NCBI RefSeq assembly: GCF_001263175.1
Contig: NZ_CP012332.1
Location: forward strand, 1,671,501 to 1,735,500
DNA: 64,000 nucleotides
Direction of reading: 5' to 3'
From: Vulgatibacter incomptus
GTDB taxonomy: Bacteria > Myxococcota > Myxococcia > Myxococcales > Vulgatibacteraceae
Made by a program: the position numbers and the translations under genes. Below the pieces are notes generated by a model. It had not been told where the DNA came from, searched no databases, and saw only the letters and a list, made by a program, of their open reading frames with translations. Position 1 is the stretch's first letter. The number at the start of each line of letters is the position of its first letter. Shown here piece after piece: positions 1 through 6,079 of the stretch.

Positions 1-91
1 CGAGTGTAAGAGCGAGGGCGGCTGCCATTGCCAACCCGAACGCAGGAAGATCGAGCCTGCGCCGAACCATGCGAGCAAATGCGCGTTCCAT
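1..91 (-). CDS. N-terminus of a third RCC1/Big2-family lipoprotein (partial, off left edge)
   Basis: On the minus strand an ATG at 91 opens a frame starting MERAFARMVRRRLDL and running into the hydrophobic stretch MAAALALTL at the window edge. The two complete RCC1 lipoproteins downstream in this window begin MERSLGRVVLWWLDL and continue with MAAAFAL in the same place. The layout (basic N-region, LDL, then the hydrophobic core) is the same, so I infer a third paralogue whose body lies outside the window. Only about 30 codons are visible, so domain content is unknown. The sequence just before the ATG also resembles the leader of the other two copies. It could instead be an unrelated lipoprotein signal peptide. 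Confidence 0.6.
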   Translation of the reverse strand, partial: MERAFARMVRRRLDLPAFGLAMAAALALTL

Positions 92-277: not shown

Positions 278-697
278 CTACCGAGGCTCGACGCGAACCT
301 TGGTGACGCCCTTCGAGACGAAGCCCAGCTCGTGGGCCAACGATCGGGAGAGATCGATCACCCTCCCCTTCGAGAACGGGCCACGGTCGTTCACGCGGCA
401 GGAGACGGCCTTGCCGTTCTCGAGTCGGGTGACCCGGAGCCACGTGCCGAAACGGTGGGTCCGATGGGCGCAGGTGGCGGCGGCGCCGTCGTACCTCTCG
501 CCGCTCGCGGTCTTCCGACCTTCGAGCGAGCGGGCGTAGAACGAGGCCATGCCCACCTCGGTCCCGTCACGCGGCGCCGTCTCCTTGGGGCCGCCGGTCG
601 TCCGCGGAGTGGGCTCGCCCCCCGGGCGCCCTCCCGGCTTCGGCGCCGTGGCGCACGCACCGAGCGAGAGGAGAAGGAGGGGGAGCACCATGCGCAT
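278..697 (-). CDS. RlpA-like double-psi beta-barrel lipoprotein
   Basis: 139 residues. An N-terminal lipobox (LSLGAC, Cys15) marks it as an outer-membrane or periplasmic lipoprotein. After a Pro/Gly/Thr-rich linker the C-terminal half is a RlpA-like double-psi beta-barrel, recognisable by GMASFYARSLEGRKTASGE and by the VNDRGPF and VIDLSR motifs. RlpA proteins bind or cleave peptidoglycan stripped of stem peptides at the septum. No SPOR domain is present, so this is the short form. The start at 697 is preferred over one 10 codons upstream because GGAAGG lies just before it and the lipobox then sits at normal distance. It stands alone between two RCC1-lipoprotein genes on the same strand. The enzymatic activity is inferred from the family, not shown. 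Confidence 0.88.
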   Translation of the reverse strand: MRMVLPLLLLSLGACATAPKPGGRPGGEPTPRTTGGPKETAPRDGTEVGMASFYARSLEGRKTASGERYDGAAATCAHRTHRFGTWLRVTRLENGKAVSCRVNDRGPFSKGRVIDLSRSLAHELGFVSKGVTKVRVEPR

Positions 698-840
698 GTC
701 GGATCCTTCCGTTGGAGGGCACTGCATGGGAGAGCCTATCCCATGCGGCGGTGCAAGCCCTCCTGGAAAGAGGCCCGGAGCCAGGCGCAGGGCGGAACGG
801 CCGCTGGGCTCGGCCGAGCAACAGCGCAGGACGCGCGAAC

Positions 841-926: not shown

Positions 927-955
927 GGGAGCCGCGATTTCCATCGCGAGCTCCC
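927..955 (-). terminator. Terminator hairpin of the first RCC1 lipoprotein gene
   Basis: Directly after the stop codon at 961 there is a GGGAGC(T)CGCGAT stem around a 4-base loop, with a single bulged base. The same hairpin, with a perfect stem, follows the second paralogue at 3036-3065, so the terminator seems to have been duplicated with the gene. Confidence 0.65.
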
Positions 956-960
956 AGGCT

Positions 961-2949
961 TCAGAACGACACCACCTGGGTGGGCTGATCGACGTTGCCC
1001 GTCCGGCCGATGCCGAGCTGGCCAGACGAGTTGTTCCCCCAGCAGTAGACGTTCGCATCGGTGCCGATGGCGCAGGTGTGGCTGGAGCGCGCCGCGATCT
1101 TCCTGAAGCGGAGGTTCCCGGCCACCTGGACCGGCACGTTGGAGTTGGCGCCGGTCCGGCCGAGCTGCCCGTTGGAGTTGGAGCCCCAGCACCAGGCCGC
1201 CCCAGTGGCGTCCAGACCGCATGTGTGAGATTCGCCGCCGGCAAAGCGGGTGAAGCTCACACCGCCCGAGATCTGGGCAGGAGTCGACTGCTGGGTGGTG
1301 CTATTGTTTCCGAGCTGCCCGCTCGAGTTTTGGCCCCAGCAATAGCTTACGCCGGCGGAGTTGGTCGCGCAGGATTGAGCATACCCCAGACCCAACACGC
1401 TCGCGTTCTGCATCGCCCGCACGGGACGGGCCTGCGACGTGGTCGTGCCGTTGCCGCACTGTCCGTAGGGATTCCAGCCCCAGCAGTAGACCTCGTCGGC
1501 GACGGTCAGTCCGCAGGTGTGGTAGACCCCACTCCCACGGAGCTCTCGGAACACGAGCGGCGACTGCCCCGCCACAGGAGCGGAGACCTGGAGCGGAGTC
1601 GCACTGCTGGAGGAGTTGTTCGGGTCTCCGAGCTCGTGGTCGCCGGAATTGTACCCCCAGCACCACGCGTTCCCCTGAGGGGTGAGCGCGCAGTTGAAGT
1701 TGTTCGCCGAGACGATGGAGTCGAACGGCCCAGCGGCGGCGAGCGCCGGCGTCCCGGAAGAGGACGGGCTAGTTCGGCCGAGCTGATAGCTGCCGTTGTT
1801 ACCCCAGCACCAGGCCTCGCCTGAGAGGGTAATGCCGCACGTGTGCGAGTCTCCGGCGGAGATCGCCTTGTAGAGCTGGTTGCCCGAGACCCGCACCGGG
1901 CTCTGCGCGCTCCCAGTGGTCGTACCGATCCCGAGCTGGCCGTACCCGTTGCTGCCCCAGCACCACACTTCCCCGCTGCCCTTGAGGGCACAGGAATGGG
2001 ACGTCCCGTTCACGACCTGCACGAGGGACGGCAGCACGTTGACGGTGGTCTGCCCATAGACCCCACCGGACTCCACGGTGATCGTCGCCGTTCCCGTGGC
2101 CACGCCGGTGACGACACCGGTCTGGTCCACCGTCGCGAACGACGGATTCAGGGACGTCCAGACCATGTCCCGGCCCTGCAGGACGACGCCGTCGCGGTCC
2201 ACCACCACGGCCGGGATCTTCACCGTGAATCCCGGATTGAGCTCGTAGGGTCCACCGAAGACGAACACCCGATCGACGCGTGCCTCCTCCACCTCGACCT
2301 CGACCTCCGCCACCATGCCTTCGATCGTCGCACGGATCGTGGCCGTTCCGGGGCCCACGCCGCCCACCCGGCCGGTCGAGTACGCGCGCGCGATGTTGAC
2401 GTCCGACGTATCCCACCGGACAGAGAGGCCGTGAATCGGCCGATCATTCGCGTCGTAGGCCGTAGCCGTGAGCTGGATGGCCTGGTTTTGGACCACGTGG
2501 GGCGAGTCCGGCGTCAGCTCGATCCAGGCCACGACGACCTTGTCACCGCCGCCCGCCCCGCCACCGGTTTCGATGTCGCCGCCCGTGCCGGGATCGCCGC
2601 CGGTGCCGGGATCGCCCCCCGTTCCGGGGTCGCCGCCCGTGCCGGGGTCGCCACCGGTGCCGGGATCACCGCCAGTGCCGGGGTCGCCACCCGTGCCCGG
2701 GTCGCCGCCGGTGCCTGGGTCGCCGCCGGTGCCTGGAACGCCGCCGGTGCCAGGGTCGCCACCGGTGCCGGGAGCGCCGCCAGGGCCGCCCGCGGCGCCC
2801 CCGTTTCCTCCGGTCAGGTAGTAGCCCTGGTGCCCCGGGTCATTACTACACGCGCTCGCCATGATCAGCGCAAACGCTGCCGCCATCGGCAACCTGGGCG
2901 AGATCAGATCCAGCCACCACAGAACCACGCGACCCAAGGAACGTTCCAT
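961..2949 (-). CDS. RCC1-repeat/Big2 surface lipoprotein (copy A)
   Basis: 662 residues. The order is: signal peptide with lipobox ASAC (Cys34); Gly-rich region with about 11 PGTGGD hexapeptides (about 60-126); two bacterial Ig-like group 2 (Big2) domains (about 140-225 and 228-310); then seven RCC1-type repeats to the C-terminus, each with a Cys-rich WCWGxNxxGQLG signature and about two cysteines, consistent with a seven-bladed propeller. The ATG at 2949 is chosen because GAAGGTGA precedes it and the lipobox then sits correctly; the longer open frame upstream lacks a signal peptide. The protein is probably anchored in the outer membrane, with the propeller held out on a flexible stalk. Binding partner unknown. 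It is the downstream neighbour of a close paralogue and nearly identical to it in the first half. Confidence 0.9.
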   Translation of the reverse strand: MERSLGRVVLWWLDLISPRLPMAAAFALIMASACSNDPGHQGYYLTGGNGGAAGGPGGAPGTGGDPGTGGVPGTGGDPGTGGDPGTGGDPGTGGDPGTGGDPGTGGDPGTGGDPGTGGDPGTGGDIETGGGAGGGDKVVVAWIELTPDSPHVVQNQAIQLTATAYDANDRPIHGLSVRWDTSDVNIARAYSTGRVGGVGPGTATIRATIEGMVAEVEVEVEEARVDRVFVFGGPYELNPGFTVKIPAVVVDRDGVVLQGRDMVWTSLNPSFATVDQTGVVTGVATGTATITVESGGVYGQTTVNVLPSLVQVVNGTSHSCALKGSGEVWCWGSNGYGQLGIGTTTGSAQSPVRVSGNQLYKAISAGDSHTCGITLSGEAWCWGNNGSYQLGRTSPSSSGTPALAAAGPFDSIVSANNFNCALTPQGNAWCWGYNSGDHELGDPNNSSSSATPLQVSAPVAGQSPLVFRELRGSGVYHTCGLTVADEVYCWGWNPYGQCGNGTTTSQARPVRAMQNASVLGLGYAQSCATNSAGVSYCWGQNSSGQLGNNSTTQQSTPAQISGGVSFTRFAGGESHTCGLDATGAAWCWGSNSNGQLGRTGANSNVPVQVAGNLRFRKIAARSSHTCAIGTDANVYCWGNNSSGQLGIGRTGNVDQPTQVVSF

Positions 2950-2990
2950 TTCGGTCACCTTCGTTTCTATCGATGTCCCATCTGATTCGG
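2020..2990 (-). repeat. Long direct repeat, copy A (5' half and leader of RCC1 gene)
   Basis: This segment matches 4151-5112. In the Big2-coding part (2020-2540 against 4151-4671) I find only about two base differences in 520. The signal-peptide part and about 40 bases of leader are also nearly identical. The 18-bp repeat tract in between differs in copy number. Homology drops sharply at the start of the RCC1 region. Confidence 0.88.
2579..2776 (-). repeat. 18-bp coding tandem repeat (PGTGGD), about 11 units
   Basis: Imperfect 18-bp units encode the hexapeptide PGTGGD, with one PGTGGV variant, forming a flexible collagen-like linker between the lipid anchor and the Big2 domains. The equivalent tract in the neighbouring paralogue has about 12 units, so copy number varies between paralogues. 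Confidence 0.9.
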
Positions 2991-3035
2991 CCGCGCTCCG
3001 ATGCGAAACCGGAGCGCGATCGACCGCGGATCCAC

Positions 3036-3065
3036 GGGAGCTCGCGATGGAAATCGCGAGCTCCC
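3036..3065 (-). terminator. Terminator hairpin of the second RCC1 lipoprotein gene
   Basis: A perfect 13-bp stem (GGGAGCTCGCGAT with its complement, loop GGAA) begins six bases after the stop codon at 3071. No T-run follows, as is common in very GC-rich genomes. Confidence 0.7.
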
Positions 3066-3070
3066 TGGCT

Positions 3071-5071
3071 TCAGAACGTGACCACCTGGGTGGGCACATT
3101 GGCGTCGCCGGACCGACCGATTCCGAGCTGGCCGCTGGAGTTGCTCCCCCAGCAGTAGACGTTCGCATCGTTGGTGATGCCGCAGGATTGGTTGTTGCGC
3201 GCCGTGATCTTCTTGAAGCGCAGTCCGCCGGACACCTGCACCGGCACCGAGGAGTCGGTGCTGCTGCCGGACCGACCGTTTCCGAGCTGCCCGTAGAAGT
3301 TGTAGCCCCAGCACCAGGCCGCCCCATTGGCGTCGAGGGCGCAGGTGTGACTGGAGCCGCCGGCGAAAGCGGTGAAGCTCACGCCGCCGCTCGAGATCAG
3401 AACAGGCGTGTTCTGACTCGAGGTATTCCCGTTTCCGAGCTGCCCATTCCCGTTGTACCCCCAGCAGTAGCTGACGCCAGAGCCGGTGGTCGCGCATGCG
3501 TGGCTCGAGCCCATTCCGAGCGCAACCGTCGTCTGCGTCGGGAAGGGCCGCACGGCCCTCTCCTGCGCAATGGAGTTGCCGTTGCCGAGCTGCCCGTTGG
3601 AGTTGTACCCCCAGCAATAGAGCTCATCGGTGGGGGTCAGGCCGCAGGTGAAGAAGTACCCGCCGCCCCGGAGCTCTCGGTACACCATGGGCGACGAGGC
3701 CCCCGCTGGCGCCGAGACCTGAAGCGGAGTCGCGCTGGAGCTGGTCGAAGGGTTGCCGAGCTCGTGGTCGCTGGAGTTGTACCCCCAGCAATACGCGAGC
3801 CCCTGAGGGTTGAGCGCGCAGTTGAGGCTCATCGCCGAGACGACGGAGTCGTACGGTCCAGCGCTGGCGCGTGTCGGCGCCGGGAAGGTGCTACCCGACG
3901 CTGATTGGCCGCTCTGATAGGAACCGTTGGCCCCCCAGCACCAGATTTCGCCCGAGACGGTGACGCCGCAGGTGTGCGACTCGCCGGCGGAGATCGACTT
4001 GAACAACTGGGTGCCCGAAACCCGAACCGGGCTCTGCTGGGTCCCGCCGGACGTCCCGGTCCCGAGCTGGCCGCTCGAGTTGCTACCCCAGCACCACACT
4101 TCCCCGTTGCCCTTGAGGACGCAGGTGTGGTTCGTCCCGCCCACGATCTGCACGAGGGACGGCAGCACGTTGACGGTGGTCTGCCCATAGACCCCACCGG
4201 ACTCCACGGTGATCGTCGCCGTTCCCGTGGCCACGCCGGTGACGACACCGGTCTGGTCCACCGTCGCGAACGACGGATTCAGGGACGTCCAGACCATGTC
4301 CCGGCCCTGCAGGACGACGCCGTCGCGGTCCACCACCACGGCCGGGATCTTCACCGTGAATCCCGGATTGAGCTCGTAGGGTCCACCGAAGACGAACACC
4401 CGATCGACGCGTGCCTCCTCCACCTCGACCTCGACCTCCGCCACCATGCCTTCGATCGTCGCACGGATCGTGGCCGTTCCGGGGCCCACGCCGCCCACCC
4501 GGCCGGTCGAGTACGCGCGGGCGATGTTGACGTCCGATGTATCCCACCGGACAGAGAGGCCGTGAATCGGCCGATCATTCGCGTCGTAGGCCGTAGCCGT
4601 GAGCTGGATGGCCTGGTTTTGGACCACGTGGGGCGAGTCCGGCGTCAGCTCGATCCAGGCCACGACGACCTTCTCACCCGAGCCACCAGTGCCGGGGTCG
4701 CCACCCGTGCCGGGATCGCCACCCGTGCCGGGATCGCCGCCCGTTCCGGGATCTCCGCCCGTGCCGGGGTCGCCGCCGGTGCCGGGATCACCGCCGGTGC
4801 CGGGGTCGCCGCCCGTGCCGGGGTCGCCGCCAGTGCCGGGGTCTCCGCCCGTGCCAGGGTCGCCGCCGGTGCCAGGGTCGCCTCCAGTGCCGGGATCGCC
4901 GCCAGAGCCGCCCACGGCGCCCCCGTTTCCTCCGGTCAGGTAGTAGCCCTGGTGCCCCGGGTCATTGCTACACGCGCTCGCCATGGTCAGCGCAAACGCT
5001 GCCGCCATCACAAACCTGGGCGAGATCAGATCCAGCCACCACAGAACCACGCGACCCAAGGAACGTTCCAT
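3071..5071 (-). CDS. RCC1-repeat/Big2 surface lipoprotein (copy B)
   Basis: 666 residues, with the same architecture as the copy at 961-2949: lipobox ASAC, Gly-rich linker of about 12 PGTGGD units, two Big2 domains and seven RCC1-type repeats with Cys-x-Cys-Trp-Gly cores. The Big2 region is essentially identical in protein sequence to copy A, while the propeller repeats differ at many positions, mostly in loops. The ATG at 5071 has the same GAAGGTGA leader as copy A. The gene is transcribed towards copy A but has its own terminator, so the two are probably separate units. The pattern suggests variant surface propellers on a common stalk; ligand unknown. Confidence 0.9.
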   Translation of the reverse strand: MERSLGRVVLWWLDLISPRFVMAAAFALTMASACSNDPGHQGYYLTGGNGGAVGGSGGDPGTGGDPGTGGDPGTGGDPGTGGDPGTGGDPGTGGDPGTGGDPGTGGDPGTGGDPGTGGDPGTGGDPGTGGSGEKVVVAWIELTPDSPHVVQNQAIQLTATAYDANDRPIHGLSVRWDTSDVNIARAYSTGRVGGVGPGTATIRATIEGMVAEVEVEVEEARVDRVFVFGGPYELNPGFTVKIPAVVVDRDGVVLQGRDMVWTSLNPSFATVDQTGVVTGVATGTATITVESGGVYGQTTVNVLPSLVQIVGGTNHTCVLKGNGEVWCWGSNSSGQLGTGTSGGTQQSPVRVSGTQLFKSISAGESHTCGVTVSGEIWCWGANGSYQSGQSASGSTFPAPTRASAGPYDSVVSAMSLNCALNPQGLAYCWGYNSSDHELGNPSTSSSATPLQVSAPAGASSPMVYRELRGGGYFFTCGLTPTDELYCWGYNSNGQLGNGNSIAQERAVRPFPTQTTVALGMGSSHACATTGSGVSYCWGYNGNGQLGNGNTSSQNTPVLISSGGVSFTAFAGGSSHTCALDANGAAWCWGYNFYGQLGNGRSGSSTDSSVPVQVSGGLRFKKITARNNQSCGITNDANVYCWGSNSSGQLGIGRSGDANVPTQVVTF

Positions 5072-5112
5072 TTCGGTCACCTTCGTTTCCAGCGATGTCC
5101 CGTCCGATTCGG
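4151..5112 (-). repeat. Long direct repeat, copy B (5' half and leader of RCC1 gene)
   Basis: Partner of 2020-2990. It covers the Big2 domains, linker, signal peptide and about 40 bases of leader of copy B. The homology extends upstream of the start codon, so the duplication or conversion tract includes regulatory sequence. Confidence 0.88.
4682..4899 (-). repeat. 18-bp coding tandem repeat (PGTGGD), about 12 units
   Basis: Twelve imperfect 18-bp units encode PGTGGD in copy B. Synonymous variation at the Gly and Pro codons shows that the units have partly diverged while the peptide is kept constant. Confidence 0.9.
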
Positions 5113-5294
5113 CTCCTGGCGCGTACCGCGTCCGAAGCCTCGCGCCCACGGCGGCGCACTTAGAGAACCGGCCTATCCGCGAATGTCTCGAGGCTGCGAT
5201 CCGGATCACTCGACTGACACTCGAGTGGCGAAAGAGAGGCAGAATTGTCCAGAAGCCTAACACCAACAGCCATCCGAGGCCAAGCCGGGGCGGT

Positions 5295-5327
5295 GCCGGA
5301 GAGCTGCCGGAGAGCTGCCGGAGAGCT
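5295..5327. repeat. Three tandem 11-bp repeats upstream of RCC1 copy B
   Basis: GCCGGAGAGCT occurs three times head to tail without mismatch, and a partial copy (CGGAGAGCT) follows at 5341-5349. The tract lies in the non-coding gap between the unknown gene ending at 5348 and the RCC1 gene starting at 5071. It could be an iterated protein-binding site or simple slippage. Confidence 0.75.
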
Positions 5328-5347
5328 ATAGAAGGCCTTTCGGAGAG

Positions 5348-6079
5348 CTACCGGAGGCTCGGGACCGCCGAATCGGCGCAGCCGAAGAGCGAGGCCTCGA
5401 GGTCTGCCCTCGGGCGCCCATGGCGCATTTCCAGAGCGGTCCAGACCAGCGCGAGGAGGCGGCCTCCCGGCGGGCGCCAATGCTCCGTCAGTACGGCGGA
5501 CACCTCGGCGCGGTCGATGGACGAGCCCGTCAGTCCGGTGGCAGGAGATTGCCCCGCGGGCGGAGGTCCCTGCGTGCTACGCGCCTCGAGAGCGGTCGAA
5601 AGCCGGCAGAGCCGCTCTCGGCGGCGGAGGAATGCGTCGACGACGTCGTCGGAGACCCCGCCTCCCCTCGGGACCCTCGCCGAGAGCCAGCGCTTGGTGG
5701 CGAGGCACTCGCGCACCGATTCGTGGAAGTCGATGGCGAGGGCGATCCAGCTCCCGTCCGGACACCCGGCCTCGCCATGGCAAAGCCGCTCCAGGGCCTC
5801 GTCGACCTCTCGAGCCCTTCGCTCGAGGACCTCGGCCGACAGGGAATCGAGCTCGCGCAGGGCTCCGGGGAACGAGCGGGCGATCCTTCGAAACTCACGC
5901 TTTCGCGCGGCAGCCTCGTCCGGGCCGAAGGATTGGAGCCCCTCGCGGACCGCGTCTTCCCTACGGCGCCGGAGCTCGACGAGCGCGCGGTACTTCCACG
6001 CGAGCCGCTCCAGACGATGCGCAGAGATCAGCGAAGAAACTCCCCCACTCGCGCCGAGCGCGTCTCGGTTGTGCGCCAC
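5348..6079 (-). CDS. Hypothetical protein, last gene of the ferredoxin/ligase-like operon
   Basis: 243 residues with a GTG start. I do not recognise a family. The sequence is rich in Arg, Glu, Leu and Ala and should be mostly alpha-helical (for example the region AWKYRALVELRRRREDAV near the N-terminus), with a Pro/Gly-rich break around residues 165-180. No signal peptide or membrane segment is seen. It begins seven bases after the stop codon of the lipoate-ligase-like gene, so the two are surely co-transcribed, and the 3' end overlaps the start of the 11-bp repeat area. Codon usage matches the neighbours, which supports a real gene. Function unknown. Confidence 0.65.
   Translation of the reverse strand: MAHNRDALGASGGVSSLISAHRLERLAWKYRALVELRRRREDAVREGLQSFGPDEAAARKREFRRIARSFPGALRELDSLSAEVLERRAREVDEALERLCHGEAGCPDGSWIALAIDFHESVRECLATKRWLSARVPRGGGVSDDVVDAFLRRRERLCRLSTALEARSTQGPPPAGQSPATGLTGSSIDRAEVSAVLTEHWRPPGGRLLALVWTALEMRHGRPRADLEASLFGCADSAVPSLR

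What the first reader, a model, noticed from the sequence alone, without database searches (positions are those of the whole stretch)
2020..5112. Tandem RCC1 lipoproteins share almost identical 5' halves but different propellers
Between 2020-2540 and 4151-4671 only about two of 520 bases differ, and leader plus signal peptide are nearly identical too, whereas the RCC1-repeat halves differ at many positions. That sharp boundary is what gene conversion or cassette exchange would give: a constant stalk with a variable, seven-bladed, Cys-rich head. It may be a diversifying surface recognition system, for example in kin recognition or prey contact.
Basis: partly seen in the sequence, partly recalled or inferred. 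Interest (0 to 1): 0.72.

Follow-up and report, generated by a model that had tools for sequence, protein, structure and literature searches.

The report
Gene conversion between tandem RCC1 lipoproteins
Two neighbouring genes for predicted surface-anchored, propeller-headed lipoproteins in a myxobacterium have recently copied one about 550-base stretch (two Ig-like stalk domains) from one to the other while their propeller heads stayed different; this is real but ordinary gene conversion in a five-gene array, with no proof of a diversifying recognition system.

Summary
In detail: 2020-2540 and 4151-4671 differ at 2 of 521 bases, and the boundary at the propeller is sharp. Silent sites confirm it: 2 differences per 138 synonymous sites in the two BIG_2 domains, against 80 per 261 in the RCC1 propellers. 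The near-identical block is one tract of about 555 bp. The Gly/Pro linker upstream of it is diverged (dS 0.32) and the leader plus signal peptide differ at about 5%, so the whole 5' half is not constant. The two genes are the last of five tandem RCC1 lipoproteins. The pair g1/g2 outside the window shows an independent, older and less sharp version of the same step. Three other tandem RCC1 pairs show no such step, and one has its similar stretch in the head. There is no third copy or silent cassette and no DGR reverse transcriptase; the A and B propellers are each other's closest relatives. Best reading: duplication, divergence, then local interparalogue gene conversion. The heads are under net purifying selection (omega 0.32); their differences concentrate in loop positions, but evidence for positive selection is weak (p = 0.024, uncorrected). 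No conspecific strain was available, so chimeric alleles could not be tested.

The parts
3071..5071 (-). Gene A: RCC1-propeller lipoprotein, 666 aa
   Evidence: ORF and Pfam: 2 BIG_2, RCC1 repeats
961..2949 (-). Gene B: RCC1-propeller lipoprotein, 662 aa, 80% identical to A
4970..5071 (-). Gene A signal peptide to lipobox Cys34 (ASA|C)
   Evidence: read from sequence; no signal-peptide predictor run
2848..2949 (-). Gene B signal peptide to lipobox Cys34
   Evidence: read from sequence
4679..4936 (-). Gene A Gly/Pro-rich linker, 12 in-register copies of an 18-bp PGTGGD unit; diverged from B (dS 0.32)
2548..2814 (-). Gene B Gly/Pro-rich linker
4163..4678 (-). Gene A two BIG_2 domains
   Evidence: Pfam PF02368 and AlphaFold2 model
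2032..2547 (-). Gene B two BIG_2 domains
   Evidence: Pfam PF02368
4133..4687 (-). Homogenised tract in A (aa 129-313): 2 silent differences in 176 informative codons, against 77 in 330 outside
2002..2556 (-). Homogenised tract in B (same tract at offset 2131; edges approximate, near-identity starts about 2015 and ends about 2540)
3074..4162 (-). Gene A seven-bladed RCC1 propeller
   Evidence: Pfam; AlphaFold2 pLDDT 95; Foldseek best match UVR8
964..2031 (-). Gene B seven-bladed RCC1 propeller
   Evidence: Pfam, alignment to A
2993..3065 (-). Two inverted repeats just downstream of gene A; a related hairpin follows gene B, so the duplicated unit ran from leader through this 3' segment
   Evidence: read from sequence; the pattern scan called no T-tailed terminator here
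927..955 (-). Related inverted repeat downstream of gene B
1..91 (-). 5' end of a third array member, g3 (G000:C1:1669546-1671591), which runs out of the window; g2 and g1 follow outside
278..727 (-). RlpA-family (DPBB_1) lipoprotein gene lying between g3 and B
   Evidence: TIGR00413 E 2e-32, PF03330

Best explanation
A and B are tandem duplicates (unit about 2.1 kb: leader, gene, 3' hairpins) in a five-gene array of RCC1-propeller lipoproteins specific to this lineage (probably Vulgatibacter incomptus). They diverged over their length. Recently, homologous recombination between the two neighbours copied a tract of about 555 bp covering the two BIG_2 domains from one onto the other (ectopic gene conversion; donor unknown). 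The propellers kept their older differences. Shown: the silent-site step, its limits, the sister relation of the heads, no other copy of the tract. Inferred: that conversion rather than crossover did it, that the lipid-anchored Gly/Pro linker and Ig stalk display the propeller at the outer membrane or surface, and that the propeller's loops are a binding face whose paralogues differ in ligand.
For: dS 0.015 in BIG_2 against 0.40 in propeller; runs test beyond 10,000 permutations, and best low segment LLR 29.0 against at most 9.7 in 40 shuffles; 2/521 mismatches. The diverged in-register linker on the 5' side makes this an internal tract, as conversion gives, rather than a one-sided crossover. 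A+B is the best-supported grouping with the A head in the whole propeller and in nearly every blade. g1/g2 repeat the pattern with different boundaries: signal dS 0.21, first BIG_2 0.14, second BIG_2 0.83, propeller 1.07. Three other tandem pairs lack it. Display: lipobox and similar TGG-rich linkers on other predicted lipoproteins of this genome with different heads. Head: confident seven-bladed RCC1 model. A/B differences concentrate at GxxH and WGxNxxG positions of each blade.
Against: No outgroup or second strain, so direction and date of the conversion are unknown. Leader and signal peptide (5% different) are intermediate, so there may be more than one event. Localisation and binding are untested. 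Net purifying selection on the head (omega 0.32) does not require divergent specificities.
Confidence: 0.78

Rival explanations
1. Unequal crossing-over: an ancestral three-gene stretch recombined inside the BIG_2/propeller region, giving a hybrid with the 5' part of one gene and the 3' part of another, and one parent was lost.
For: Tandem arrangement and a sharp boundary at the propeller start.
Against: Predicts identity through linker, signal and leader too, yet the linker is diverged in register (25/216 bases, dS 0.32). Rapid repeat turnover in the linker could partly hide this.
Confidence: 0.12
2. One reading: a cassette-exchange or conversion system that actively diversifies a surface recognition head (kin or prey recognition) on a constant stalk.
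For: Heads differ at 34% of residues; differences concentrate in loop positions; omega at the five most variable blade positions (chosen from g1/g2/g3) is 2.63, p 0.024. An RCC1 propeller has been proposed as the adhesin of a type IV pilus in Saccharibacteria (PMC12206443), and an M. xanthus RCC1 protein is found in outer membrane vesicles (PMC4158809).
Against: No cassette archive or third copy; heads are sisters; overall omega 0.32; significance vanishes with 8 or 12 positions (omega 1.17, 1.00); linker also varies; control pairs lack the pattern or reverse it.
Confidence: 0.07
3. Diversity-generating retroelement (DGR) mutates the head.
For: Variation at repeated codon positions in loops.
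Against: The only RVT_1 hit in the genome is a group II intron-type reverse transcriptase, judged from its sequence; head differences are of all types (CG 65, CT 49, AG 46, AT 40, AC 37, GT 28) and include many silent ones.
Confidence: 0.01
4. Assembly or polishing artefact homogenised a short repeat.
For: A near-identical block about 0.5 kb long in a tandem repeat is a known weak spot for short-read assembly.
Against: The block is in a single-contig genome with two clean differences inside it, edges on domain boundaries, and an independent, less extreme version in g1/g2.
Confidence: 0.03

Closest known systems
RCC1/BLIP-II beta-propeller superfamily (Pfam PF00415, PF13540)
   Same: Seven blades, RCC1 repeat motif, fold matching UVR8 (TM by target 0.89), HERC2 RLD and human RCC1.
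   Different: Exported lipoprotein with two Cys per blade and BIG_2 stalk; no GEF or photoreceptor role implied.
PilX2, RCC1-propeller minor pilin of Saccharibacteria (PMC12206443)
   Same: Bacterial extracytoplasmic RCC1 propeller proposed as an adhesin.
   Different: Putative minor pilin, not a lipoprotein with Gly/Pro linker and Ig domains; not in a tandem paralogous array as far as read.
MXAN_0889, RCC1 repeat protein in Myxococcus xanthus outer membrane vesicles (PMC4158809)
   Same: Myxobacterial exported RCC1 protein.
   Different: Not compared by sequence here.
Interparalogue gene conversion leaving islands of divergence (for example GOT1 paralogues, PMC3728101, abstract only)
   Same: Part of the gene homogenised, another part kept distinct.
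   Different: Eukaryotic enzyme genes; here the spared part is a whole propeller domain.

Membership tests
RCC1 propeller proteins | Significant RCC1 repeat match, seven blades | tested here: met
   PF00415 E 3e-51, PF13540 E 8e-52, seven CWG anchors, AlphaFold2 model and Foldseek
BIG_2 Ig-like domain proteins | PF02368 above its gathering score | tested here: met
   64 bits against cut-off 22.8, two stretches
Bacterial lipoproteins | N-terminal hydrophobic segment followed by lipobox Cys | tested here: inconclusive
   MAAAFALTMASA|C read by eye; no predictor or experiment
Interparalogue gene conversion | Contiguous tract with silent divergence far below its flanks | tested here: met
Interparalogue gene conversion | Shared tract more alike within a genome than between orthologues | not testable with these tools
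   No second strain or same-genus genome found
Cassette antigenic variation (pilE/pilS, vlsE type) | Archive of silent donor cassettes | tested here: not met
   Only A and B carry the tract at high identity
Cassette antigenic variation (pilE/pilS, vlsE type) | Chimeric alleles among strains | not testable with these tools
   No strains available
Diversity-generating retroelement | DGR-type reverse transcriptase | tested here: not met
   The single RVT_1 hit looks like a group II intron-type RT
TraA-type kin recognition receptor | PA14-like variable domain plus Cys-rich repeats | tested here: not met
   Pfam scan of A and B gives only RCC1-like and Ig-like domains

The most novel reading that the evidence does not exclude
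The array is a paralogue-based recognition repertoire: conversion keeps the display stalk uniform while selection keeps and tunes divergent propeller faces, so that this myxobacterium shows several ligand specificities at its surface.
Probability: 0.1. Interest if true: 0.6.

Novelty: new member of a known kind. Interest (0 to 1): 0.3.

Why it matters
RCC1 propellers are widespread in exported bacterial proteins, and I found little functional work on them. A five-gene array with two independent stalk-side low-divergence tracts and loop-concentrated head differences gives a concrete test set for whether these propellers are binding modules. It also shows that a 'constant stalk, variable head' pattern can come from ordinary conversion plus divergence and need not mean a diversification machine.

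Tried and rejected
DGR: rejected. Silent cassettes: none. Head import from another paralogue: rejected for A/B, which group together in the whole propeller, though blades 4-6 alone give only moderate support and blade 5 of g1/g2 is unresolved. General stalk/head rule: rejected by three control pairs and by L079, L087, L088. Same cluster in the only same-family genome: no RCC1 genes near its nrdJ or ligase homologues. NG86 dN/dS of 2.2 at GxxH/WGxNxxG positions was post hoc; with a codon-frequency model it falls to 1.23 and is not significant, so I do not use it as evidence of positive selection. Blade-order shuffling: A and B blades match best in register, blade 5 only by a tie.

Full report
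Observation. Both genes lie on the minus strand: A 3071-5071 and B 961-2949. The quoted 521-bp comparison has exactly two mismatches. Domains are a signal peptide with lipobox Cys34, a Gly/Pro-rich linker (12 in-register copies of an 18-bp PGTGGD unit), two BIG_2 domains and seven RCC1 blades. The AlphaFold2 model of A from residue 131 has mean pLDDT 95 (pTM 0.77), and Foldseek places the propeller next to UVR8, HERC2 RLD and RCC1.

Silent sites. A/B synonymous divergence by domain: signal 0.03, linker 0.32, BIG_2 block 0.015 (2.0 of 138 sites), propeller 0.40 (80 of 261), with single blades at 0.22-0.68. On codons that keep the amino acid, the longest identical run is 124 of 506, against at most 72 in 10,000 permutations. 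The best low segment is aa 129-313, with 2/176 codons differing inside and 77/330 outside. Protein constraint cannot give this, since only silent changes are counted. The tract ends at the BIG_2/propeller junction. On its other side the linker is diverged and still in register, so the tract is internal, as gene conversion gives and a single crossover does not. Leader plus signal peptide are 5% different, between the two extremes.

The real extent. The window cuts an array of five such genes, g1, g2, g3, B, A, at G000:C1:1665004-1676571, with an RlpA-family gene between g3 and B. g1/g2 show the same direction of step with other limits: signal 0.21, first BIG_2 0.14, second BIG_2 0.83, propeller 1.07; best low segment aa 4-245, 33/203 inside against 108/249 outside. 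Its longest-run test alone is weaker (p 0.02). Two independent stalk-side tracts in one array is the most interesting fact here. Three other tandem RCC1 pairs in the genome are the control: two show no significant segment, and the third (546693/552105) has a weakly supported low segment at the 3' end of its propeller. A Gemmatimonadota contig (L087) has its low stretch inside the propeller. So a stalk-only rule does not hold for the family.

The heads. A and B group together over the whole propeller, as do g1 and g2, so no head was imported. A/B differences concentrate at the two x positions of GxxH and in WGxNxxG, which by standard propeller geometry should lie in the D-A and B-C loops on one face; I did not check this in coordinates. 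With a codon model that allows for GC3 of 0.85, propeller omega is 0.32. At the five blade positions most variable in g1/g2/g3 it is 2.63 (p 0.024 against 1, uncorrected), but 1.17 and 1.00 with eight or twelve positions. That is strong heterogeneity and at most a hint of positive selection.

Mechanism and function. Duplication, divergence and a recent conversion of the Ig block explain the sequence. Recombination may stop at the propeller simply because the heads are too different to pair, or because converted heads were selected against; these data cannot separate the two. The lipobox, Gly-rich linker and Ig domains look like a display stalk, and TGG-rich linkers of the same style sit on other predicted lipoproteins of this genome with unrelated heads. 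Precedents for exported RCC1 propellers are a proposed type IV pilus adhesin (PMC12206443), the secreted beta-lactamase inhibitor BLIP-II (PMC9218822) and an M. xanthus vesicle protein (PMC4158809). Ligand binding is therefore plausible, kin or prey recognition unproven.

Limits. The only same-family genome lacks RCC1 genes beside the homologous neighbours, and no second strain was found, so the requested search for chimeric alleles could not be done.

Noticed in passing
G000:C1:1665004-1671591 (L031): Three further tandem RCC1 lipoproteins (g1, g2, g3) beyond the window; g1/g2 have their own stalk-side low-divergence tract.
   Followed up: yes
G000:C1:546693-554354 (L036): RCC1 pair with a weakly supported low-divergence segment at the 3' end of the propeller, continuing about 120 bp downstream: opposite polarity to A/B.
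   Followed up: partly
G000:C1:513403-518057 (L037) and 1360178-1366394 (L038): Two more tandem RCC1 pairs with roughly uniform divergence; about 20 RCC1 genes in the genome overall.
   Followed up: partly
window 278-727 (-): RlpA-family lipoprotein gene inserted within the RCC1 array.
   Followed up: partly
L129, L131, L134, L138 and others: Many predicted lipoproteins of this genome carry TGG-rich linkers with different heads; L134:1825-3444 has 30 GTGG-type matches.
   Followed up: partly
L108:1168-2541: Sole reverse transcriptase hit of the genome, looks like group II intron type.
   Followed up: yes
L087:18-3878: Gemmatimonadota neighbouring RCC1 genes with a low-divergence stretch (aa 161-240) inside the propeller.
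   Followed up: no
window 5294-5358: Short tandem repeat (TGCCGGAGAGC) upstream of gene A.
   Followed up: no
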